Assembly: GCF_029872155.1 (NCBI RefSeq)
Contig: NZ_JARXLA010000003.1
Coordinates: forward strand, 372,001-436,000
Direction: 5' to 3'
From: Hyphomicrobium sp. D-2
GTDB taxonomy: Bacteria > Pseudomonadota > Alphaproteobacteria > Rhizobiales > Hyphomicrobiaceae
DNA length: 64,000 nt
Shown here: one piece after another, positions 40,506 through 59,807 of the stretch
Position numbering within the stretch: position 1 is the stretch's first letter
How the letters are laid out: the number at the start of each line of letters is the position of its first letter
Program-made: the position numbers and the translations under genes
Notes under the pieces: model-generated
Told to the model about the DNA's origin: nothing
The model's input: the letters and a program-made list of their open reading frames with translations, nothing else
The model's database searches: none

Positions 40506-40696
40506 GCCCATCGGAGCGGCTCGTACGCGATATCCGCCGGGCAAAGCTAATTCTGTCTCATTTCCGGGATGCGCAGCCCGGTTTCTATCATGAGGTAGAC
40601 GATGCTCGTGCGATTGTCATTGAGGCCATCAAGGGCTCCGGGCGCGAGGATGACATTTTGGCCCAATGGGTGGAGGAGGCCAAGTGCTACTCGTAG
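40506..40696 (+). mobile_element. IS3 OrfA 5' relic joined to an unknown ORF fragment
   Basis: Bases 40506-40542 read SERLVRDIRRA, closely matching the IS3 OrfA start found on the minus strand near 59960-60000. The frame continues without a stop as KLILSHFRDAQPGFYHEVDD and then VIEAIKGSGREDDILAQ to a stop at 40696. No start codon exists in this frame. The second part is unrecognised and overlaps the end of the truncated integrase on the other strand, so this marks a recombination junction. Confidence 0.45.
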
Positions 40697-41487
40697 TGCT
40701 GTTCGGGTGCAAAGTAGATGTTGTCGAGGAGTTCAGTGAGCTTGAGTTTTTTACTCTTGTTGATTTTGACGAGCATCAATTTCAGCATGCTGATGGATTT
40801 GTTGGCGGTGTTGGATTGCACCTCTTTGCGCAGGACCAGTTGTTTCCAATAATCATGCAGCGCGGCAGCGTGCTTCCAGGAGAGTTGATTTAACGGTACG
40901 TTGTGGCCGATGGCATTGATGAAGATGCGGACGCAGGTGTCGCGTTGGATACGCCATTTGCGGAGTTGGTTGGGAGAGTGGTCCTTAAGGCGGGTTTCGT
41001 CGATGGATTGATACGTGTCTACGACGTCGAGGAGCGAGAGGCCCGGTGGTTCGATGCTGCCCATGAGCGAAGCAACGACGGACTTGTTGTGAAGCTGTTT
41101 GTTGGCGACGAGGTATTCCAGTCGTTGGATGACTTCGTGGAGCCGGTCGTGGGTGTATAGGGTCGTTTTTGGGGAATAATCATAACCATGGCGGCGGGCT
41201 GTTGCGACGGCCCTGTCATAGTCCGCTGAGGCGTCGGGGTTGATGCCGTCGGCCAGGGCAGACCAGCGCTGATGAAGGGCGTGGTCGAGGTAGGCTATGA
41301 TGGTTCGGGCTTGTATGCCGTAGGGGTCGTCACAGACACGGATGTGTGTGCTCTGAATGACGATGTTACGCGTTTCCCAAAACTTGAAGCGTGTTGGTAC
41401 TTTCCGGCGGAGGTGCCAGATGCCATTGCGGTTATATGGTTCCGGGCTGCGGCTGTGGCGGCGGGGGCTCAAGGGGCTCTCTTGCAT
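40687..41487 (-). pseudogene. Truncated tyrosine integrase (N-terminal part)
   Basis: 266 residues. PEPYNRNGIWHLRRKVPTRF is the DUF6538-type N-terminus found on phage-like tyrosine integrases, and LSLLDVVDTYQ to VLRKEVQSNTANKSISMLKL fits the core-binding domain. The catalytic domain (Arg...His-x-x-Arg...Tyr) is missing: the frame stops at 40687, exactly where sequence from another source joins. It is therefore a 3'-deleted, inactive integrase and a likely scar of a lost integrated element. Confidence 0.7.
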
Positions 41488-41946
41488 GGGTACAAGAGTT
41501 AGCTAAGGGGCGAGCTTTGTCGACCAGTATCGCATTAAGTGTGGGGTAAAGTGTAGCAGAGAGGGCCTAAGCCGCAAAAAAAGATCAGGCAGCTTGTCCC
41601 GCCAGCATTGTCTGAAGCAGCATCTGACGCTTGGGCGCCTCTATCCGAAGCAGAGTGCACAGCTTGGAATTGGATTGACGTTGCCACGACATGACTGCTG
41701 CTGGCCCATGCGCTAGGTCGCGGAAGACCGGCATTTGATCTCTGCCGACTTGATCCTAGAACGAGCGCGCTTGTCGGTTTGTCCCAGTGAAGGAACCCGC
41801 TTTCGCGGGAGAGCGCTGCGCGCAAGGGCAGCGGCGCCAGCTGCTTAGGATGCGCTAACCAACGGATCGACGTGCGGTAACGGGGCGGGCGCTCCGTCTT
41901 GAGGATCGAGGGGTCAAGCACTCCAACCTCAAGACAGGAGACCCCG
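41488..41946. other. Intergenic region at the left side of the IS91-type element
   Basis: About 460 bases with no credible gene. The left end of the IS91-type element must lie here, probably in the last 100 bases, but its exact terminus could not be set. AGGAG precedes the recombinase ATG at 41947. Confidence 0.4.
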
Positions 41947-42845
41947 ATGAGCGAGAAGCCCATCAGCCCGTTGCGCGCCCGCATGATCGAAGACATGTGC
42001 GTGCGCGGTTTCTCTCCCGCCACCCAACGCGGCTACATCCGCGGCGTCAAGATGCTGGCGGCCTTTCTGGGTCACTCCCCTGACACCGCGACCGCGGACG
42101 ACCTGCGCGCCTTCCAACGGCACCTGGCAGCCACGGGAGTGACCCCGGGCGTGCAGAACATGACGGTATCAGGGCTGCGGTTCTTCTTCCGATTCACCGT
42201 CGACAAGCCGGAGACGACGCAGCACCTCGTCTACACCCACGAGCCGCGCAAGCTTCCCCGCGTGCTCTCGCCGGAGGAGATCGGCTGGCTGCTGACGGCG
42301 GCAACGGAGCCGAAGGACAAGGCGATGCTGAGCGTCGCCTACGGCGCCGGATTGCGCGCCATGGAAGTCGTTGCACTAAAGGTCTCCGACATCGACAGCA
42401 AGCGCATGCTGCTCCGGGTCGGCAACGGCAAGGGCGGCAAGGACCGCTACGTCATGCTCTCGCCGACACTGCTCGAGGCGTTGCGCGACCGGTATCGCAT
42501 CGCCCGGCCGCGCGTCTTCCTGTTCCCCGGCCGCGATAAGATCGGACCGATGACGACGCGGCAGTTTCACCGCATCTGCAAGGGGCTGCCCAGCGTGCGG
42601 GCCTGCCGAAGTGGGTCGGGCCGCACACGCTGAGGCACTCGTTCGCGACGCACCTGCTCGAGAACGACCTCGACGTGCGCGTCATCCAGGTGCTGCTCGG
42701 CCACGCCCAGTTGGATACGACCGCCCGCTATACGCAGGTGGCGACCAGCGTCATCCGCCGCGTGATGAGCCCCATCGACCGGCTCATCCTGCTCGACGCG
42801 CCGCCCAATGACGCTCCGCCGCCGGATGAGGCGCCGCCGGCATAG
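41947..42845 (+). pseudogene. XerC-like tyrosine recombinase of the IS91 element, frameshifted
   Basis: Starts MSEKPISPLRARMIEDM with AGGAG upstream. The N-terminal SAM-like domain and the start of the catalytic domain (YGAGLRAMEVVALKVSDID) are intact. Near 42581-42590 one base is missing in AAGGGGCTG; after it, the catalytic end is read in another frame as [36 protein letters not shown] and a Pro-rich tail. The His-x-x-Arg and Tyr residues are thus present in DNA but out of frame. Confidence 0.85.
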
Positions 42846-42857
42846 CGGCAGGCGGCA

Positions 42858-44035
42858 TTGTCTCGTCCAGCTCTGGAGGTCGCGGACATTCTCCGCGATC
42901 ACGGCGCCGCCTGGCGTGACGCCAACGCCGGCCATGTGAGCCTCGGCCAGATGAAGGTGATGTCGGCCATCGAGCGCTGCCGCACGGCGGCACTCGGCGG
43001 ACACGTCGCGCGCTGCGAGAACAGCGCCTGCGGGCACACGGTGATTGCCTACAACAGCTGCCGCAACCGCCACTGTCCCAAGTGTCAGGGAGCGGCGGCG
43101 CGGGAGTGGATGGAGGCGCGCGCAGCCGAGCTGCTGCCCGTGCCGTATTTCCATGTCGTGTTCACGCTGCCGGCGGCCATCGCCGACATCGGCTACCAGA
43201 ACAAGGCGGTGATCTATGACCTCCTGTTCAAGGTGTCGGCCGAGACGATGACGACCATCGCCGCGGATCCCCGGCATCTGGGCGCGAAGATCGCGATTAC
43301 GTCGGTGCTGCACACCTGGGGCTCCGCGATGACGCATCATCCGCACGTGCACATGATCGTGCCGGGCGGATCGCCAAGCGGCCGAACTTCCTGCTGCCGG
43401 TCATGGTGCTGTCGAAGCTGTTTCGGCGGCTCATGCTCGAACGGCTGACGGCGGCGCATGACAAGGGTTTGCTGAACTTTCACGGTGCGCACGCACCTCT
43501 TGCCGATGCGAAGGCGTTTGCGGCGTTCCTGGCGCCGCTGAAGAAGACGCGGTGGTTCGTCTACGCCAAGCGTCCCTTCGCCGGGCCCAAGGCCGTGCTC
43601 GCGTACCTGTCGCGCTACACCCATCGCGTCGCCATATCGAACCGTCGGCTGATCGTCGCCGACGGCGGGACCGTCACCTTCAAGGTGAAGGACTACCGGA
43701 TCGAGGGCGCCGGCCGCTACACGACGATGACACTCGATACGCATGAGTTCATCCGCCGCTTCCTCCTGCATGTGCTGCCCAAGGGCTTTCACCGCATCCG
43801 CCGCTACGGGCTGCTGGCAAGCGGTGTGAAGGCTGCGAACCTTGCCAGGATGCGCGCACTGCTCGACGTGGCGCCGCCGGATCCGCCGGAGCCCGAAGCC
43901 GTCAACGGTGCCGACGTTCTGCCGATACCGTGCCCGTGCTGCGGAGGCCGCATGCTCATCATCGAGCGGTTCGAGGCTGGCTGCCAGCCGCGCCATCGTT
44001 CGACGCCGGTCATCATCAGGATCGACACATCATGA
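42858..44035 (+). pseudogene. IS91-family transposase, internally deleted
   Basis: The TTG start gives MSRPALEVADILRDHGAAW. The zinc-binding N-terminus is clear (CENSACGHTVIAYNSCRNRHC, read as Cys-x4-Cys and Cys-x3-His-Cys groups) and the HUH motif lies in MTHHPHVHMIVPGG. Near 43367-43372 a short segment is lost: family members have GIS-x-DG-x-RW here, while this copy jumps from VPGG to IAKRPNFLLPV out of frame. The rest, including YLSRYTHRVAISNRRL with the catalytic Tyr region, and the C-terminal CPCCGG, follows in the second frame to 44035. Confidence 0.87.
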
Positions 44036-47726: not shown

Positions 47727-48314
47727 ATGAAAGAGACGTTCGAGGAAAAGCTTGCGCGCGTGGCGGGATCCATTCGGCGTATCGTAATCGACGATCCGCA
47801 CCGGCGCTACCGGGATGGGATTCTTTATTGGCTGAACAAGGCGGACGCGCTGCATGACGCCGCTATGGTTCTGGGAGGAGATCCTTTCGGCCATCATTTC
47901 GAGGCGTTCGCTCTGCTGGCCGGCTTCTCGCTAGAAGCATTGATCAAAGGCACGCTGACCGGCCTCGGTGAGAAGGTTCCCTTCACCCACGACCTGGTGA
48001 CCTTGTTTGAAAGGGCAGGTCTCGAGCTATCGGACGACGATCGCGTCGTATTGAAGGCCCTAACCGTCTATACGACGTGGCATTCTCGATATCCGGCCGC
48101 AAAGGACGCAAAGGGAATGATCGAGGGCATGGAGGTGTTGAGGTCTCAATATCCTTCATCCGGGAACCTCCAGACGATCGCCGAGACGGCAAACGCATCC
48201 CCCGCCAGTCTGAACACTGCAAGCTACGAACGGCTCTACGGATTTTGCCGCCAACGGTTCTTTGATGTGCAGTCGTCGGTACATGAAAGCGTGCATTACT
48301 CGTATGAGTCCTGA
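47727..48314 (+). CDS. HEPN-like domain protein
   Basis: 195 residues, nearly all helical. FEAFALLAGFSLEALIKGTL, FTHDLVTLFERAGLELSDDD and TWHSRYPAAKDA match the conserved core of HEPN proteins (helix with AxxLxGxxLExxLK, then THDLxxLxxxAG, then RYP). A canonical RNase motif (Arg-x4-6-His) is not evident, so it may be a non-catalytic HEPN protein. HEPN proteins act in toxin-antitoxin, RNA-cleavage and abortive-infection systems, which fits the position beside a nuclease-NTPase operon. Partner is probably the preceding gene. Confidence 0.6.
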   Translation: MKETFEEKLARVAGSIRRIVIDDPHRRYRDGILYWLNKADALHDAAMVLGGDPFGHHFEAFALLAGFSLEALIKGTLTGLGEKVPFTHDLVTLFERAGLELSDDDRVVLKALTVYTTWHSRYPAAKDAKGMIEGMEVLRSQYPSSGNLQTIAETANASPASLNTASYERLYGFCRQRFFDVQSSVHESVHYSYES

Positions 48315-48466: not shown

Positions 48467-51400
48467 ATGACATTGTCTAAGCATGAGATAAAAACGTCCG
48501 CCATCACGCGAGCCGGTTTTGAGTATCAGGATCTCATCGGCATTCAGCTACTCATCGCGTTCTACCGCGACCCCAAGCTATATGTTTGGATCAAGCTCGA
48601 GGCTGACGACGTAGAGGTTCGTGCGCTAGACGATATCCTCGCATCTCGTCCTGACGGCACCCTTGACGTCACGCAGGTCAAGTTCACGGTCGATCCTGAG
48701 CGATACTTCCTCGATTGGGATTGGCTGCTCGAAAAGAAGCCCAAGGGCACATCGATGCTCGCAAAATGGGCCAACTCGGTTCTGACTCTGGCTCGCGACG
48801 GGAAAATCCATTCCGCCAAGCTTCGCACAAACCGAATGCCCTCGCCCGAGTTCGCTAAAGCTCTTCAGGGATACGCGGTCCACTACGATCTGCTAGCAGA
48901 CGACATCAAACTTAAGCTGAATGGCGATATTGGCAGCGAGGCGGATGCCCGCCAATTCCTGTCAATCTGGCAGTTCCATCACTCAGAGCCCATGCTGAGT
49001 GATCTGGAGTATCAGCTTATGAGCAGCCTAGTGCCCTCAGACGCCGATCCATCGAAATGGCTGCTCCTACGCGACAGGGCGAGGCGATGGGCGATCAACA
49101 AAAACCAGCCTGCGCCAGATGGCCGGATTCAGCATGGGCACCTCACTCAGATCATCACCAAAAGCAAGCTGCAGCCGATGCCGCAGCAGTTTCGCGTGCC
49201 CGATGGGTATCGCGTTCCACGGCAGGATTTTCATGCCGGGCTGATGAAGGACATCTCCGAGCAAGCCAAAAACTTGCTCGTGCTGTGGGGCTCGCCCGGG
49301 CGTGGCAAGAGTACGTACCTGAGTTACCTAATCGAGCAGCTTCGCGCTGCGGATGTGTCAGTGATACGACATCACTACTTCTTGTCCCTCGAAGACCCGA
49401 CCATGGACCGCGTCTCCTTTGCCGACATCGCGTCGTCGCTGATGAACCAGATCGCGATTCACTACCCTGATGGCGTCGCCCACGGCGGCGGCAACGAGCC
49501 CGACGACGAGATCAACCGTCTTCGCTTCTGGATCGAGAAGTGTGCCACCTACTACTAGGAAGAGAAGAACAAGCCCTTTGTCATCGTTATCGATGGACTC
49601 GATCACGTATTCCGGGAAAAAGGCGACACTTCTCAACTCAGCCAGCTTTTCAACCATCTACTGCCGGTGCCGGAAAATGTGATTCTGCTCGTTGGCACAC
49701 AGCGCGTCCCCGACGCGCAGCTGCCTAACAAACTCTTGTCGTACGCCAAGGCGGATGACTGGCGAGAGATACCGTCGATGGACGAGGGAGCAATCCTCGC
49801 CTGGCTGACCAAACAGAAAGAGCTAGGTCGGCTTAGGGTGCCTGCTCCCCCACATGGAGAAACTGAAGCAACGCAGCTCGGCGACATCGCCCACGCGTTT
49901 TTCGATATCAGCCACGGCAACCCGCTCCATCTCATCTACTCCTTCGAGATGCTGGTTTTGACGGGCGACGAGATCCGGGCGGAGGATGTCGAACTCCTCC
50001 CACAATGTCCTGATGGAGACATCCGCGAATATTATAGGACACTTTGGGCAAAGCTTTCCCCCGGTGCGAAAGAAGTCCTGCATTTGATTGCGGGCTGCGA
50101 GTTTCACTGGCCGGCGGAAGGTCTCCGGTCGTGCGCGGGGCCGACAGACGAGGTCGAGCACATGCTCGAGCATCATCGATCTGGAGTTATGCCGTTTCAT
50201 GGAAGCATCCTCGCTTACGCACGCGAGCGCAGCGACCATGGCAATACAGTGCGAGCGTTACTGCCTCGGGTTGAGAAGTGGCTGTCGGAAGAGGCGCCTC
50301 CGTTGCCGAGATGGGGATGGCTGTGGCTCACCCAGTCGAGAGGTGGTGATAGCGAGAACCTAGTGAGCCAACCTACTCGGCGGTGGGCAATCGAATCCAT
50401 CATCGCAGGATGGCCGATCGATCAGATGGTGACCGTTCTATCTGAGGCTGAGATAGTCGCATTCGATCGGATGGATCTCGCGCGAGCATCGGAACTGCGT
50501 CATCTGAAGACCCGGCTGCTGAACGGCCCAACCTTCCAAATGGGCAAGTTCATGGAGCTGGAGACCGCGACGCTCATTGACGCAAGGAATCGGGATCGTC
50601 TTCACCTGATGATCTACGGTCTTGCCAGCCTGCCTGAGCAGGACATTGTTGCTCTCGCGCGAGCGGCATCTCGCATCGCGCCTGAGCTTGTTGCTGAATG
50701 CGCCGAGGAGTTACGCAATCGCCTTAACCTGTGGATCGGTTTACGACATCGGCCGCGCAAGGACTTCGAGACGCTCACGCGTTATTTCATCGAGGTGCAA
50801 GCAATCGGCGGGCCGGTCGATATTGATACGCTGATCCGTTTTATTCGACAGTTCGAAGAGCGGGAAGAGTTGTTCGATTGGCTCATCGAAAGCTTGTCGC
50901 GCGAGCGGCGATACGAGTCCCTGGTGAGCGGCGAGAGGGTTCTTCGCGGTCCAGAGGACACCGAATGGCGGCAGCGCGTGCTCGATGCGATCATCCGCTG
51001 TGCGTGGTCTGAGCAGGCCGACGCAGGAAGCATAAATCGCGCAGCGGACTGCGAGACCAGCGCATTCGCAGCGTGCTGGCTGCGCTATCACAAGCTCTCG
51101 CCTGTACCACCAGTACCAAGCTTCATTTTCCCGCCCGGCATAGTCAAAGAATACTATGAGTACGGCACAAACCATCAACTAGTATCCCTTTTTCGCGCGC
51201 TATTCTTCAACGCCCTCGAGAGAAAGCTTGATGGCTCAAGTCTGGACATCTCTGACTGGCTGAACTCGAACGCTGCGGCCGCTCCATGGCTTTGCAATGC
51301 ATTTGAAATGCTGAAGAGCGGGGCAGAGACCGTGGCTTCTGGCGCCATGGAGCTGTCGTTTCCTGCAGTCTACCGAATTGCTGAATCAGTGCCGCAGGTT

Positions 51401-52855
51401 GAGACTGGCCGCCCGACTGAGGCGGTAGCTGTACAGCAGATTGCCTTTAGGCGTGCCTTGCTCGACATTGCTATCGACATTCACTTTTTAAAGTCGCCTG
51501 TCGGCAGGCAGCCACTTCTCATTGATCAAGTCCTGGAGGAAGTGCGGCGCTCGAGGCATTGGGTCGAGGAGTTCTGGCTTGCGACGCAAATCGAGCACCA
51601 GTACGTGCTCACATCTGCCGATACCGCCGCGGCGTCTCTTCAGCGGGAAAAGGATCAGCTCGCTGGCGAGGTGACAGAATTCTATCCTCGCGCCGACAAA
51701 TGGGTAGAATTGGCGCAATTCGCTCAACTGTACAATTTGCCCGCGACTGAGATTCTGCGTCGCGCGGCTGACTGCCTGCTCGGGCACGGTTGGCGCAAGG
51801 ATCTTTGGTTGAGCGACGTGCTTGAGGCTCTTGCTGAAGCACATAGAGAGGGCGCGATTGACTCTGTGCCGGCCCTCCGACGTTTGACACCGATCATCGA
51901 GCAAATAACGACCTTCACCGACGGAGATGAGACAGATCATGTGCGATCTGAGTTGATCGACGCCGTCAAGGCGGTGAAACCAGATTGGCTTCCGAGCTTC
52001 AACGCTCACTACGCGGAGACCGAACAATATCGATACGCCGACGAGGCATTGGAGGCCCACCTCGAGGTATGTCGCCTTGATGAAGAAGCCGCAGCGGCGC
52101 TGGCCGGAACGCTTCTCGAGGCACGAAACTTGACCTCCCTCACCCGGCCCACTGAATCTGGTGACAACCGAGCGGCCCAAGCCGTGCTGGATAGGCAGCT
52201 CCGGTTCTTGGGCGGAAAGCCCAGTCCGGTGCACAGAGAGCGAGGCTCGACCGATACGCCAGAAGTAGTGATAGCGAACACCGTTGATGTCACCTCGTTT
52301 GGCCCAGCAGAATTTGCGAAGTTGCATCGAGCGATCCAAGTGCATCCTCAAGGCTACGCGATGCGATATTTGGCCAAGGAGTGGCTCGCTCATTGGAAGA
52401 ACGAAGGAGAGGGAATTGAGGCTCTCGGCTCGCTGCAGACATTCCTGGAGCAGGAAGAGAACCCGTACTACGCCGAAGATGCATTGGACTACGCGTTCCA
52501 GGCCAGCCTGGAACTCCAAGGCAAGACCGCCGCTTACTATTGGCTGGTGCAGGCTCACATCCATCGTCACGGATGGATCAACTGGGCGTCCAAAAAAGAA
52601 GCTTACGCGAGGCTAGACCTCGCATTGAAGCACTACCCACATAAGTGCGTAGACTTCATACGAGACACGTCCCGTCCATCGCGAAATTGGCAGAAGCGCA
52701 AGCACAGCTTCACGCTCGGCCAGGAACGCCTCATCCACTTCCTGCTTCAATGCGGTCAACTCCAGTTGGCGGCCTCCATACTTCGCAGCTATGTCGAGCT
52801 GGCGGTCGAAGAACTCTCGGATCAGCCCATACCCGATTGCCCATGGCTGACGTGA
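48467..52855 (+). pseudogene. Cap4-like nuclease-STAND NTPase, one in-frame amber stop
   Basis: A continuous frame of 1,462 codons except for TAG at codon 364 (49556-49558). The N-terminus resembles the Cap4/DUF4297 dsDNA-nuclease fold: RAGFEYQDLIGIQLL (15-29), acidic KLEADD (43-48), DD (55-56) and TQVKF (69-73) as the catalytic D/E...Q-x-K. A STAND NTPase follows: Walker A GSPGRGKST (275-283) and, just after the stop, Walker B FVIVIDGLDHV (371-381), then VGTQRV. Residues about 480-1460 are helical repeats, as in sensor regions. This is the layout of Avs-type antiviral proteins. The start ATG is chosen because it directly precedes the conserved part. If the stop is real the ATPase is split; if readthrough or an error, the gene is intact. 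Confidence 0.8.
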
Positions 52856-54306
52856 CCTCCACCGCATCACTGAGAATGCTTATAGGTCGGCTGGCCTGGC
52901 CTGTGCGCTTTGTTCGATGGCGCGCTGCCCGAGAGTATGCTTCGATCCTCAGCTGTCCAAAGCTTGGCGCCGACGCGGCAAACATTTTCCTCGAATGGCT
53001 GGGAGCTCGGAAACTCGAAAGCGAGATCGTCACTGGCCTGTCAGTTTTGATTTGCGCTGACCCGGTCGCCCGGCCACCTGCCATCGGTGTTATAGAGCGA
53101 ATAGGCCGACCATCCATATTGAGTGACGCACTGTTGTCGCTCCTTTATGGGCCGGAGCATGCGACGGAACCCTGGCGAACGGGTAACTCCGGAAGCTCTC
53201 CGATCCAGTTTGTTGCTGAACCCTATTTCGGGAAGCACAATACTGCCTGCGTCCCCCCCATCCTGAAGGTGCGCCTTGAAAAACTAGAGCAGATAAGCGG
53301 AGGCATTCCTCTCGCGCAACAGTGGAGCTACGAGTGGCAACAACTTGTCGATAGGTACGACGCCCCACGCTCATCGTACCCATATTACTTCGTGGACTTC
53401 AGTGAGCACCAATCCGGCATCGACGGTCAATTCAGCCAGCGTCAGTGCGACTTCTTACGCTCTGCTTATCTTCGAACGCTTTCTTACGCGGTGGATGTTA
53501 GACGGATGCCAATGGACATCGCGCTTGACAGCGCTCTCCTTACCTTGCCGCTCAATCCCGGGCTTGCTCGGATCGACCCGATTTCCAGACCGACCGCGTT
53601 AGGCGACCGGCCCGAGAAGCTCTTCCAGATGGAAGGGGCGTCCGAGCAATTGGTCCAAGACCTCATGTCTCAAAATGCTCACACCATCGGGATGCAACCC
53701 ATCTCGCTGACTGTACCAGTCGATGCAGGAGTAAATTCGCACGCGGAGATTCGAATTCGTGCGCTGCTGGCAAGCGACGACTTTCAACCCGACAGTGCAC
53801 CAGATGCTGTATTTGAGGGAGACTTGGACTGGAAGTTCCAGGATGGGATGAGCTTCGCCGGTGTCTTGCCCCAGCTTCACGAGGAGGAGCAGGTCATTCG
53901 CGGGCAGTCAGGCCATGCCATTCCGCTGGCCGTCAGGCTGTACCCGCGGAGTTACGGCTTCTGGATGCTGGACTACTTCCACGTTGGCATCAGTGCGCCA
54001 TCTTCATTGCTGCTCGAAAGCGACGTCGCCGTTAGCTGCCTCGCAGATAGGATCGGATTCCTTGCTAACGAGATCGAGGTTGGAAACTGGAAAGTTTGGC
54101 ATGATCATTGGTCTCCCAGGTATATTCGCCCGGACGGCAATACTCGCTGCGGTACGATTACAGAGGCTAGTTCAGACGCACTGAAGGCACGCATTTCTCG
54201 GCGCGGGCGTAGGTTAGCTTGGGTCGTCGAAACACGTGAATGGAAGCAGGAATCCGACCACGGCCCTTATAGGCTGCACAGGCGAATGCACTTCTTCAAA
54301 GCATGA
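52843..54306 (+). CDS. Unknown partner of the STAND NTPase, coupled start
   Basis: 487 residues from ATG at 52843, overlapping the STAND stop by 13 bases (ATGGCTGACGTGA). The N-terminus (LRMLIGRLAWPVRFVRWRAA then REYASILSCPK) looks like HEAT-type repeats seen at the C-terminal side of very large STAND proteins. The rest contains SYPYYFVDFSEHQSGIDG and EEEQVIRGQSGHAIPLAVRL and no recognised catalytic motif. Two readings are possible: a separate, translationally coupled subunit, or the far C-terminus of one ~1,950-residue protein split by a frameshift near 52843. The canonical stop/start overlap favours the first. No family assigned. Confidence 0.7.
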   Translation: MADVTSTASLRMLIGRLAWPVRFVRWRAAREYASILSCPKLGADAANIFLEWLGARKLESEIVTGLSVLICADPVARPPAIGVIERIGRPSILSDALLSLLYGPEHATEPWRTGNSGSSPIQFVAEPYFGKHNTACVPPILKVRLEKLEQISGGIPLAQQWSYEWQQLVDRYDAPRSSYPYYFVDFSEHQSGIDGQFSQRQCDFLRSAYLRTLSYAVDVRRMPMDIALDSALLTLPLNPGLARIDPISRPTALGDRPEKLFQMEGASEQLVQDLMSQNAHTIGMQPISLTVPVDAGVNSHAEIRIRALLASDDFQPDSAPDAVFEGDLDWKFQDGMSFAGVLPQLHEEEQVIRGQSGHAIPLAVRLYPRSYGFWMLDYFHVGISAPSSLLLESDVAVSCLADRIGFLANEIEVGNWKVWHDHWSPRYIRPDGNTRCGTITEASSDALKARISRRGRRLAWVVETREWKQESDHGPYRLHRRMHFFKA

Positions 54307-54389
54307 AGTTCTGATGCAAGCGACAGAGGGTGAAGACTGGGCGCCAGCCATCTTGGTTTATTGAATAGTAGCTTGCAGCGTTCCGAAGC

Positions 54390-55238
54390 ATGTCTGACAA
54401 ATCATACTCTGCCCTCGATCGCGAAATCATAACCCTCGCCGCTGTGTGGGACTTGATCGGCTCGCTGGTGCACTATGGCCACTTCATGAAGGGTCATAGG
54501 ACTGATGGCGCTGTCCTAATGTTTCAGACACGGGAGGCGAGCAAGCTCTTTGTCATTATACTGGCTGACTTCCTATCGCTTCCCCGCGATGGGGTGTTCG
54601 GTTTGACTAGGCCGAGGTCAGAAGGCAGCCTCGGCAAGACTTACCTCGGCCACCTCGAAAGCGTTGTTGGCGACCCGCAGTTCAACGGCGATGTTGGGTT
54701 GCTCGCATCGTCGGTGAAAGCCTTTGCGGGATGGCTGGATGGCTATACCGTTGTTGAAAAGGTTTGGCTTCCCTCAATTGAACGCGACGGGACGGTGCGC
54801 GTGCAGCGCATGGCCTACCTCAAGATTTGTGGGACAATCTCCAAGCACGGGTTCACCCGGCTTGGAGATGTCGTCAGGCAGGTACGGAAAATCCTCGCCG
54901 ACAACGGAACAGAAATCAACGAAGGGCAGAGCTATCTTGTGATCCCTGAGTTCCAGGAATGGTTCCGGGACAACATCTTCATCGCGTCATCGACTGTCGT
55001 CGCTTGGCACCTCAACGAGATCCGATGGGGTATCTACCAATACCTCTTGTCGGAGTTCCGACGTGCCTACACCCCAACCGAAGTCTCCGAGGGCATGCAG
55101 ATGTACCGATACGACGTGCCAAAGGCAGTCACTGATCCTCTTGTCCGAACGATGTACTGGGATCTCATGAATAACGTCCGCGGCCAGCCCTACTTCCCAC
55201 GGTTCACGGTCGATCCATACATCAGGGACCTATACTAA
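54390..55238 (+). CDS. Unknown protein downstream of the STAND operon
   Basis: 282 residues, soluble, no signal or membrane helix. Helical N-terminal half (REIITLAAVWDLIGSLVHYG, MFQTREASKLFVIILADFL) and a C-terminal part with WFRDNIFIASSTVVAWHLNE and a conserved-looking RAYTPTEVSEGMQMYRYD. No family recognised. It begins 83 bases after the partner gene on the same strand with no hairpin between, so it may be the third gene of the same operon. Role unknown; position suggests defence. Confidence 0.6.
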   Translation: MSDKSYSALDREIITLAAVWDLIGSLVHYGHFMKGHRTDGAVLMFQTREASKLFVIILADFLSLPRDGVFGLTRPRSEGSLGKTYLGHLESVVGDPQFNGDVGLLASSVKAFAGWLDGYTVVEKVWLPSIERDGTVRVQRMAYLKICGTISKHGFTRLGDVVRQVRKILADNGTEINEGQSYLVIPEFQEWFRDNIFIASSTVVAWHLNEIRWGIYQYLLSEFRRAYTPTEVSEGMQMYRYDVPKAVTDPLVRTMYWDLMNNVRGQPYFPRFTVDPYIRDLY

Positions 55239-57059: not shown

Positions 57060-59672
57060 TCATCTGAGGACGTTTGGGGTGTTCAAATTGTTGCGCAAAA
57101 TGGCGGCGCCGTAAGCGTTGTCTGCCAGAAGCTCAGTGGCAAAGGCAGACGGCGTGTCTCGGTCGACCAATATCGTTACCGAATGCCGCGCCCTCGTTAA
57201 GGCCACATAGAAAAGTCTTCGCTCCTCGGCATGTTCAAAGCGCTCGGGCGCTGGGAGTACAAGTTCGAGCAGCGAGTCATCAACGATCTGAGATGGAAAG
57301 CCCATTCGACCGCGTGCAGCTCGCAAGATGACTACGTGATCGGCTTCAAGTCCTTTCGAGCGATGGACCGTCAAGAAGCGCATGTCGAGTTCTGGGAACT
57401 CCGATGCCAGGGCTGCCAGATTGTCCGGCTGCACAAACCGATAACGCCCGAGAAGAAGAACGCTCGCTCTTCCAGTCGACCGCTGTTGGATTTCGTCCAA
57501 CGCCCCCCGCAAGGCTTTGGCTTCGGTGCTTCGTGTATAGTGCACGATCTTGATCGCTGGGGCGTGAGCTTCTGCGGCAGGAACCATTCGTTTTTTAAGC
57601 TGCGCTGGATTCTGCAGTACGAACTTGCGCGCTGCGAGCGCGATCCGGTCGGAGTTGCGGAACGTTCTGCCAAGATCCACCACGTGGTGCACGCCGCCCG
57701 AGCCTGCGAAGGTCCCGCCGAAAACGTCGCCGAACTTTTGCATCAGGCTGAGATCGGAGCCAGCGAAGCGATAAATTGATTGCCAGTCATCACCAACGGC
57801 AAAGATGCGGGCGTCTGAATGTTGCGCCTTCAGAGCTAGAAGTAATCCGCCTCTGCCGTCCGATATGTCTTGGAATTCGTCGACCAGCAGGTGTTTGTAT
57901 GGGCTGGTATACCGTCCAGATCTAACATGGTCAGTGGCGCGACTGATCATGTCCTCGAAGTCAATCCTGTCTCCAAGACGCTTTTGATACGCTTCGAAAA
58001 CAAGCTCGAAGATCTCGAGGAACGCTTGCTCCCGCTGGGCATCGGAGAGTGGTCCGACTTGCTGACGGCATTCCTCCACCGACAATTTGCAGCTCTTGAA
58101 GTGCCGCAGGAAGATGCCGAGCGTTTGTGTGAAGGCGTCCAACTGTCCCAGCTGGGACAGCCTCTCAAATGTCTTCTCCGGCGGAATTGGAGCAGTCTTC
58201 GTGTAAGGTTCAAGCTTCTTCTCAAGTCCGGGAAGCAACCGCCCTTCGACGTTCTCGTAACTATACGTTTCGATCAGTATGGTGCCGTGTGTCTCGTGCA
58301 CTTGGCGTTTCCACGCCATACCTTCGAGATAGATGTCACGGTCAATATGGGGTGCCGTCGTCAGGCGCACGTCGCCGCCGGGACCACGCTCCTTGCGAAC
58401 CCCAAAATGTTCGATATAGACGCCGCTTTCGGTCAGCCGAAAATCAGGCGTGTAAGCGCGCCGGTCGTTGTTGGAAAGCTCGTGCTCGTAGTCCGGCTCG
58501 TATTCGTATTCGATCCCGTTGAGATATAGCCAATTCGCAATCAGCAGTTCCTCGTAGCTGCGAACTCGCTCACCTTGAAGGGTCCGCAGCTCGTTGTCGT
58601 CAACGTAGCGGGCGTACTCATCTTCTGAGTTAAAATCCCATTCTGTCTTCCACGGCCGATAGAACTCTCCGAACCAGCGCAGCAGAAGCGCGCAAGCCTT
58701 GGGTTGAGTCGCAACTTCGTTCATCACGACATCACGCAACAGAGCAAAAAACTGCACGTCATCGCTTGCATGCGCTGCAAGGGCTGGCGCCTGACGTTCT
58801 AGCTGCCGAATGATCTCATAACCAAGCGAATGGAATGTCATTGCATCGACAGGGGCTCCGCATCGCTGCCTGATCCTTCCGGCCATCTCCTCAGCAGCGT
58901 CGCTGCCGAACGCAAGCAGGAGGATCTCATTGGGAGGTCGAATGCCGCGCTTGATTAGATACGCGGCCTTGGCGACGATGACGCTCGTTTTGCCGGACCC
59001 GGCGCCCGCAAGAACAAGTGTGGCGTCCTCATCCGTGACGACTGCCAAGCGTTGTTCATCTGTCAGCGGATGAGCCTCGATTGCATCGAAGAACTCCCTC
59101 ATTTCGATCAGTTCTGTTTCGAGAAAGGTTTTGATCGCTGTCTCGCGAAGCTTCGCGGGCTCGTCGCGGACTTCTGCCGCGGCGGCAAATATGCGCATCT
59201 GATCGTCGGACAACAGATCGCTTGGCGCCGACTTAGGCAATAATTCAAAAACATCCTGAGCCCGCCTTATGAACGGGTTCAACAAGCAAGCGGCTGGGTA
59301 GCGTCTTGGCTGCTTCAACCGCTCGTTTATCAGCGCCAACGCGCGGAGTTCGGTCTCCGCCTGTTCGAACAGTGTAGTTATGTAACGGTTGCGGGTTTCA
59401 TTCGCCGCCTGCACGAAGGACGGAACGTCTGCTGCCTTGAAACCGGACGCACGCCATTCCGTACCATCCGCGAGCAGCAAGACAATTGTCCCGCGACCCG
59501 CATCTCGGGCACAACCTTCCATTTCGGCAAAGGAGATTTGAGGGCGCCTACCTCCGGAGAGTTCGATACCGGAAGCGTTGAGGCGGATACTCCGAAGCGG
59601 GCTCCTCAACAGGCTGTGCAATAGCCATGAATAGGTGCTTCTGCGTAACTCAAGGGAGCCCTCTGCTGGCAT
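57060..59672 (-). CDS. UvrD/HelD-like helicase with inserted PD-(D/E)XK nuclease
   Basis: About 870 residues from ATG at 59672; the frame is open 75 bases upstream. Superfamily 1A motifs in order: Q-motif LTDEQRLAV, Walker A LAGAGSGKTS (about 221-230), motif II LLVDEFQD (about 595-602), motif III VGDDWQSIYRFAGS, motif IV RTFRNSDRIA, motif V TVHRSKGLEADHVVI and motif VI RLFYVALTRAR. Between motifs I and II sits a restriction-endonuclease-like module: YEELLIANWLYLNGIEYEYE, YTPDFRL and YIEHFG (about 372-425). This resembles helicase IV (HelD) proteins with a nuclease insert. It should unwind and cut DNA, in repair or defence. It converges on the HNH gene and closes the island. Confidence 0.85.
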   Translation of the reverse strand: MPAEGSLELRRSTYSWLLHSLLRSPLRSIRLNASGIELSGGRRPQISFAEMEGCARDAGRGTIVLLLADGTEWRASGFKAADVPSFVQAANETRNRYITTLFEQAETELRALALINERLKQPRRYPAACLLNPFIRRAQDVFELLPKSAPSDLLSDDQMRIFAAAAEVRDEPAKLRETAIKTFLETELIEMREFFDAIEAHPLTDEQRLAVVTDEDATLVLAGAGSGKTSVIVAKAAYLIKRGIRPPNEILLLAFGSDAAEEMAGRIRQRCGAPVDAMTFHSLGYEIIRQLERQAPALAAHASDDVQFFALLRDVVMNEVATQPKACALLLRWFGEFYRPWKTEWDFNSEDEYARYVDDNELRTLQGERVRSYEELLIANWLYLNGIEYEYEPDYEHELSNNDRRAYTPDFRLTESGVYIEHFGVRKERGPGGDVRLTTAPHIDRDIYLEGMAWKRQVHETHGTILIETYSYENVEGRLLPGLEKKLEPYTKTAPIPPEKTFERLSQLGQLDAFTQTLGIFLRHFKSCKLSVEECRQQVGPLSDAQREQAFLEIFELVFEAYQKRLGDRIDFEDMISRATDHVRSGRYTSPYKHLLVDEFQDISDGRGGLLLALKAQHSDARIFAVGDDWQSIYRFAGSDLSLMQKFGDVFGGTFAGSGGVHHVVDLGRTFRNSDRIALAARKFVLQNPAQLKKRMVPAAEAHAPAIKIVHYTRSTEAKALRGALDEIQQRSTGRASVLLLGRYRFVQPDNLAALASEFPELDMRFLTVHRSKGLEADHVVILRAARGRMGFPSQIVDDSLLELVLPAPERFEHAEERRLFYVALTRARHSVTILVDRDTPSAFATELLADNAYGAAILRNNLNTPNVLR

Positions 59673-59807
59673 TTGGTTCTCGTCGCGGTTGTTCGTCGTC
59701 GAATGCTTTGAGACAGTTTTAGGCTTGATGGACTGGAGGGCTTCCAAATCGTTCTGAGTTCAGATTTATGCTGCTCTTTTGAAGTGGGTCAATCGACACG
59801 GGCGCTG

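What the first reader, a model, noticed from the sequence alone, without database searches (positions are those of the whole stretch)
48467..55238. Candidate three-gene defence operon: nuclease-STAND NTPase, coupled unknown partner, unknown third protein
Seen: a 1,462-codon frame with Cap4-like nuclease residues, Walker A GSPGRGKST and Walker B FVIVIDGLDHV; a partner starting inside its stop codon; a third unrecognised gene 83 bases on. Known: Cap4/DUF4297-STAND proteins (Avs type) usually act as single-gene phage sensors. A coupled 487-residue partner with HEAT-like start and a 282-residue unknown would be an unusual accessory set. Inference: a multi-gene variant of an Avs-like system.
Basis: partly seen in the sequence, partly recalled or inferred. 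Interest (0 to 1): 0.75.

Follow-up and report, generated by a model that had tools for sequence, protein, structure and literature searches.

The report
Split phage-sensing nuclease with detached sensor
A bacterial defence protein that is one long chain in many relatives is here encoded as two overlapping genes, a nuclease-switch part and its detached sensor end; this copy is interrupted by a stop codon, and the third gene beside it is a roving defence and prophage passenger rather than a core part.

Summary
The first (48467-52855) is a Cap4-type nuclease fused to a STAND/NACHT NTPase and a long C-terminal region, but an in-frame TAG at 49556-49558 interrupts it between Walker A and Walker B. 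The 'unknown partner' (52843-54306) is not an extra factor: 90% of it aligns to the C-terminus of single-chain relatives (about 1,910-1,920 aa) that start with the same nuclease and NTPase, and its predicted structure (pLDDT 92) has one clear match among solved structures, Avs3 bound to a phage terminase (E 6e-6). Of 80 genome loci of this family, 39 are split like the window, 18 fused, 17 interrupted or unassignable, 6 cut by contig ends; split/fused changes at least six times on the tree. The third gene (54390-55238) is not a core part: it lies beside 1 of 80 relatives, and elsewhere beside AbiE, a TPR-PIN gene, integrases, or inside prophages. Its recurrence behind a split STAND operon in a distant clade (Caballeronia) is a real oddity. 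Verdict: a split-sensor variant of an Avs-like system, probably inactive here, plus a promiscuous cargo gene of unknown fold. The three-gene reading is not supported as a rule; the Avs-like reading is.

The parts
48467..49555 (+). Cap4-type nuclease domain plus Walker A half of the STAND/NACHT NTPase (363 aa up to the in-frame stop)
   Evidence: invariant D55 D56 ... Q70 V71 K72 and G278 G280 K281 S282 T283 in A2
49556..49558 (+). in-frame TAG stop that interrupts the STAND gene between Walker A and Walker B
49559..52855 (+). remainder of the STAND frame: Walker B, rest of the NTPase, long C-terminal region (repeat character inferred from Avs proteins), stop TGA 52853-52855
52843..54306 (+). 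partner: detached C-terminal sensor part (487 aa; helical N half, beta-rich C half), overlapping the STAND frame by 13 nt
54390..55238 (+). third gene (282 aa): member of a rare cargo family of defence islands, plasmids and prophages; not a core component
47727..48314 (+). upstream HEPN-domain gene (195 aa), 152 nt before the STAND start; island context, no homologue in the other loci compared

Best explanation
The locus is a split-sensor version of an Avs-like (Cap4 nuclease - STAND/NACHT NTPase - C-terminal sensor) anti-phage protein. Gene 1 encodes nuclease, NTPase switch and most of the C-terminal region; gene 2, translated from an overlapping start, encodes the last ~480 residues, which in other bacteria are part of the same chain. 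By analogy with Avs proteins the sensor would bind a phage protein, the two chains would act together, the NTPase would oligomerise and the Cap4 domains would cut DNA and stop the infection. SHOWN: domain content, one-to-one mapping of the two genes onto single-chain relatives, repeated split/fused change, Avs3-like fold of the sensor model. INFERRED: non-covalent assembly, the phage ligand, nuclease activity. This copy is interrupted by an in-frame stop before Walker B and is probably inactive. The third gene is a separate defence/prophage cargo gene.
For: blastp: the STAND pieces and partner cover one 1,922-aa chain almost end to end (2-358, 359-1449, 1454-1874; 24-35% identity). Two-gene operons in Cupriavidus pMOL28, Azonexus, P. 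aeruginosa and Roseibium plasmids; single chains in Serratia, Klebsiella and Pseudoalteromonas plasmids. The Klebsiella stretch is held at 99% identity by 4 of 5,426 E. coli genomes; the two that were read have one 1,922-aa gene. 80 genome loci: 39 split, 18 fused, 17 other, 6 contig end. Tree of 89 rows: 7 split/fused changes, at least 6 forced by well-supported branches. Partner model pLDDT 91.9, pTM 0.91; both chains of 8dgc (Avs3 with PhiV-1 terminase) are the only Foldseek matches with E <= 0.001. D..QxK and Walker motifs invariant in A2 (8 sequences) and A8 (20 sequences).
Against: No sequence similarity to any solved Avs was found: phmmer and profile searches of the PDB gave nothing significant. 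The Foldseek alignment to Avs3 is loose (TMq 0.46, rmsd 11-12 over 553-561 columns) and the tool does not show which part of Avs3 is matched. No phage assay, interaction or nuclease activity was found for this family. The window copy is broken, and the nearest partner relative in the order sample (G056, 35% identity) also has an interrupted STAND frame. The tree has several long branches, the window's among them.
Confidence: 0.82

Rival explanations
1. A true three-gene system: the third protein is a functional accessory (regulator, second effector or inhibitor) of the split STAND pair.
For: A homologue (36% identity) lies 90 nt behind a split STAND operon in Caballeronia catudaia, on the other side of a 100/100 branch of the tree, with almost the same spacing as in the window (83 nt). 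In other genomes the gene follows a defence gene directly (AbiEii, about 2 nt apart by mechanical ORF starts; TPR-PIN gene, 14 nt overlap).
Against: Present beside 1 of 80 genome loci of the STAND family (62 of the 80 hold the partner end and at least 1.2 kb beyond). Of 16 third-gene places read outside viral contigs, 14 have no STAND or partner relative in the stretch, nor do 8 viral contigs.
Confidence: 0.12
2. The partner is an independent protein (for example a regulator, or the 'multidrug DMT transporter permease' of plasmid records) that merely lies next to the STAND gene.
For: Annotated as such a permease in several plasmid records.
Against: Fused in frame to the same STAND protein in 22 of 91 loci; confident mixed helical/beta model with an Avs3 match.
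Confidence: 0.03
3. The in-frame stop is programmed or harmless: a 363-aa Cap4 nuclease fragment acts alone or the stop is read through.
For: The rest of the frame shows no further stop, so the break is recent, an assembly error, or tolerated.
Against: In relatives with interrupted frames the first open frame has other lengths (328, 582, 623, 693 codons and more), which looks like independent decay; the downstream fragment can only restart after Walker B.
Confidence: 0.06

Closest known systems
Avs3 (AVAST type 3; PDB 8dgc, bound to PhiV-1 terminase)
   Same: Very large chain (2,004 and 2,028 residues against ~1,910-1,920 for intact fused relatives); partner model matches it as the only significant solved structure. 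That Avs3 has an N-terminal Cap4-type nuclease and STAND NTPase is recalled, not tested here.
   Different: Sensor part encoded by a separate overlapping gene; no sequence similarity found.
Avs1b NTPase region (PADLOC PDLC02159)
   Same: 19 of 20 members of A8 match this model (best 1.7e-17); the matches given with coordinates (L087, P0006, window pieces) lie in the NTPase region.
   Different: No protease or MBL-fold nuclease domain hit among the operon's genes; the effector is Cap4-type.
CBASS Cap4 / SAVED_PDDEXK effectors
   Same: N-terminal nuclease domain with D..QxK.
   Different: The PADLOC SAVED_PDDEXK match covers only the first ~125 of 483 profile positions; no SAVED or cyclase hit in Pfam.
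Recurrently acquired nuclease-protease pairs (PMC12799240; passages seen)
   Same: Precedent for a gene module joined to several unrelated defence systems, the pattern suggested for the third gene.
   Different: The third protein has no nuclease or protease hit (Pfam, PADLOC, PHROGs, PDB folds).

Membership tests
Avs (AVAST) STAND sensors | STAND-type NTPase with Walker A and B | tested here: met
   Motifs; Pfam NACHT above cut-off in relatives P0003, P0006, P0012; in the window the stop splits the domain, N-terminal piece hits NPHP3_N above cut-off
Avs (AVAST) STAND sensors | N-terminal nuclease effector | tested here: met
   PADLOC Cap4-type models 2.2e-12 and 3.2e-12; Pfam Cap4_nuclease only 0.012, below cut-off
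Avs (AVAST) STAND sensors | effector, NTPase and sensor in one chain | tested here: not met
   Window is split; 39 of 80 genome loci split, 18 fused
Avs3 specifically | detectable sequence homology to Avs3 | tested here: not met
   No significant PDB sequence hit for P0003, A5, A8; no Avs2-Avs5 name among PADLOC hits of 20 members (whether the library holds such models was not checked)
Avs3 specifically | Avs3-like C-terminal fold | tested here: inconclusive
   Only significant Foldseek match of the partner, E 6e-6, prob 1.00, but TMq 0.46, rmsd 11 and matched region of Avs3 not shown
Avs (AVAST) STAND sensors | activation by a phage protein such as terminase or portal | not testable with these tools
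   needs phage assays
Avs1 | protease-fused NTPase with upstream MBL nuclease gene | tested here: not met
   Avs1b similarity with coordinates seen only in the NTPase; no protease or MBL hit in the operon
CBASS Cap4 | SAVED ligand domain and cyclase gene | tested here: not met
   SAVED_PDDEXK model matched only in its nuclease part; no SAVED or cyclase in Pfam scans
HEPN/Abi families (third gene) | recognisable HEPN, AbiV or AbiE domain | tested here: not met
   no Pfam, PADLOC, NCBIfam or PHROG hit for P0002; no PDB or BFVD fold match with E <= 0.001

The most novel reading that the evidence does not exclude
The third gene founds an undescribed family: a portable defence accessory of new fold that is repeatedly joined to unrelated defence operons (split STAND twice in different clades, AbiE twice, a TPR-PIN gene once) and carried by prophages inside their structural gene block, so it may serve as a shared effector or safety control that makes different defence systems, and prophage superinfection defence, work.
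Probability: 0.25. Interest if true: 0.68.

Novelty: new variant of a known kind. Interest (0 to 1): 0.45.

Why it matters
A natural two-chain form of an Avs-like sensor would let the recognition half be swapped, titrated or removed without touching the nuclease, which makes it testable whether the sensor half carries specificity and auto-inhibition. The family is widespread (20 alpha-, 17 beta-, 23 gammaproteobacterial and 20 other or unplaced loci among 80). PADLOC recognises only its nuclease and the Avs1b-like or other STAND NTPase in 20 members scanned, and its sensor gene is annotated as a drug-transporter permease in several plasmid records.

Tried and rejected
Partner as unknown accessory: rejected by fused relatives. 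Third gene as conserved component: rejected as a rule, kept as a rival because of L087. Conserved neighbour: of the window ORFs compared with 91 other loci, only the recombinase 41899-42633 (6 other loci), the ORF 40690-41487 (L044) and the third gene (L087) recur. Phage origin of the STAND gene: no match of 49667-52852 in 50,697 phage records and none for A2 in viral contigs. Weak partner hit G235/L004 (E 6.9e-4, a STAND protein with a TIR-like start by eye) was dropped as chance. Sequence homology to solved Avs: nothing significant. tRNA in the window: none. First genome scan with P0001 alone found no relative. Literature searches listed no paper that, by title and abstract start, describes this split family; the library is open access only, and searches were too broad to be informative. 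Papers: passages of PMC12799240 and PMC12931631 were seen; all others only as listings. Avs details not in those calls are recalled.
Full report
OBSERVATION. The window lies at G000:C3:372001-436000 of a 3.79-Mb genome in 9 contigs. The STAND frame runs 48467-52855. It is open for 1,462 codons apart from one TAG at 49556-49558, where about 54 stops would be expected by chance. The stop separates the nuclease and Walker A (363 aa) from Walker B, and the first start codon in the second part lies after Walker B. The partner starts at ATG 52843, overlapping the STAND frame by 13 nt; the third gene starts 83 nt after the partner.

WHAT THE FIRST GENE IS. The N-terminal piece matches Cap4-type nuclease models of PADLOC (2.2e-12, 3.2e-12) and NTPase models of Pfam (NPHP3_N 1.5e-7, above cut-off); Pfam Cap4_nuclease is weak (0.012, below cut-off). 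The second piece matches the Avs1b NTPase region (4.1e-6). The three intact STAND relatives scanned give Pfam NACHT above cut-off. In an alignment of the window with 7 relatives, D55, D56, Q70, V71, K72 and the P-loop residues are invariant.

WHAT THE PARTNER IS. Sixteen plasmid records encode partner relatives. In Cupriavidus pMOL28, Azonexus, Pseudomonas aeruginosa pF061_1 and Roseibium it is a separate gene directly after an 'ATP-binding' or 'NACHT' gene. In Serratia, Klebsiella pC240_1 and Pseudoalteromonas it is the end of one 1,842-1,922-aa protein; the 1,842-aa Klebsiella one is interrupted in its nuclease part by an insertion sequence. In blastp, the two window STAND pieces match residues 2-358 and 359-1449 of the Serratia protein and partner residues 3-440 match 1454-1874: the chain is simply cut in two. 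Four of 5,426 complete E. coli genomes hold a 3.9-kb stretch of the Klebsiella form at 99% identity; the two that were read have it as one 1,922-aa gene on the chromosome.

HOW GENERAL. A scan of genome contigs with the N-terminal alignment gave 99 relatives, 80 kept: 39 split, 18 fused, 17 other (short, interrupted or otherwise cut, which I read mostly as decay), 6 at contig ends; with plasmids, E. coli and one order genome, 43 split and 22 fused of 91. Estimated overlaps at the split are 1-31 nt in the 43 (estimated from the profile start). On a tree of 89 N-terminal sequences split/fused needs 7 changes, at least 6 forced by well-supported branches; some branches, the window's included, are long. 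The 80 loci include Nitrospirota, Thermomicrobiota, Bacillota, Bacteroidota and an archaeal MAG. In the order of the window the partner is rare: own genome plus one other of 297 (G056); a third, weak hit was dropped. G056 also has an interrupted STAND frame.

FOLD. The partner model from 62 aligned sequences has pLDDT 91.9 and pTM 0.91: helices to about residue 280, then a beta-rich domain. The only matches with E <= 0.001 among 350,542 PDB chains are the two Avs3 chains of 8dgc, bound to PhiV-1 terminase (6e-6 and 1.7e-5, prob 1.00, TMq 0.46, rmsd 11-12). No sequence search reached Avs3, so this is a resemblance of fold, not proven membership of Avs3. PMC12931631 (passages) states that STAND proteins have an N-terminal effector, central NTPase and C-terminal sensor, and that Avs1-Avs4 recognise terminase, portal or another phage protein and kill the cell by nuclease activity; that is the basis of the mechanism proposed.

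THE THIRD GENE. Its family is rare: 3 of 297 genomes of the order (one of them a 34-residue remnant, G154), 5 of 398 of the phylum, 4 of 385 of the class (one a fragment at a contig end, G672, not read further), own genome included each time. Nine plasmids hold matches, one of them only a 36-aa remnant. I read the surroundings of 16 places outside viral contigs, the window included. In 6 of 16 the gene follows a same-strand gene within 100 nt: the split STAND partner in the window and in Caballeronia L087, AbiEii in Phaeobacter and in G630 (AbiEii 1e-35), a TPR-PIN gene in G143, and a 166-aa ORF without Pfam match in G589. The other 10 have no such neighbour; 5 of these are Agrobacterium/Rhizobium plasmids with one common layout beside an integrase. 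The remnant in Mesorhizobium lies about 1.1 kb downstream of another TPR-PIN gene. No STAND or partner relative was found in the 14 places other than the window and L087, in the Mesorhizobium stretch, or in the 8 viral contigs. Of the 80 STAND genome loci, 1 has the gene; 62 hold the partner end and at least 1.2 kb beyond it.

THIRD GENE IN PROPHAGES. Eight IMG/VR contigs encode it. In L126 it lies between a neck/tail-completion gene (phrog_26) and the head maturation protease (phrog_976), in L124 upstream of a terminase large subunit (phrog_9); L125, L130 and L131 show the same order as L126 by eye, in L127 the protease is about 4 kb further on, and L128 and L129 were not assigned. In L131 the gene itself is in two pieces. 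Such insertion inside a structural block is typical of cargo genes (general knowledge). The model (pLDDT 84.8) has no match with E <= 0.001 in PDB or BFVD, so function is open; an abortive-infection or superinfection role is my inference from the company it keeps.

INDEPENDENT JOINING. The window and Caballeronia L087 are on opposite sides of a 100/100 branch. Two separate acquisitions are the simplest reading, since no other of the 80 loci shows the gene.

VERDICT. An Avs-like architecture in an unusual two-chain form, interrupted in this genome, beside a cargo gene of unknown fold. Neither the split family nor the cargo gene was found described in the searches listed, but both belong to known kinds of thing.

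Noticed in passing
L063 23-2776, L076 4691-8473, L078 4702-8475, L088 4714-8514, L090 4400-8218, L094 4714-8493; L072 14601-18014: A ~1,260-aa protein (cut short by the stretch end in L063 and L072) without Pfam match in the two copies scanned, with an ECK motif near its end by eye in L076, lies just upstream of the STAND operon in six loci and downstream in one: a candidate accessory of that branch.
   Followed up: partly
window 47727-48314: HEPN-domain gene (PF05168 3.6e-5, above cut-off) 152 nt upstream of the STAND gene.
   Followed up: partly
window 57060-59747 (-): 895-aa DNA helicase IV-like gene, below the NCBIfam cut-off of helicase IV (445 against 543 bits) and longer than that model (684 positions), so it probably carries extra segments.
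   Followed up: no
window 41899-44035: Tyrosine recombinase followed by an IS91-type transposase in two frames: a broken mobile element next to the island.
   Followed up: partly
L005 8058-9434, L009 8058-9434, L011 7992-9434: Sensor gene annotated as 'multidrug DMT transporter permease' in plasmid records, a misannotation; in L005 and L009 the listed start lies 57 nt inside the tblastn match.
   Followed up: yes
L008 2400-3880: In Klebsiella pC240_1 the single-chain gene is interrupted in its nuclease domain by ISKpn26.
   Followed up: no
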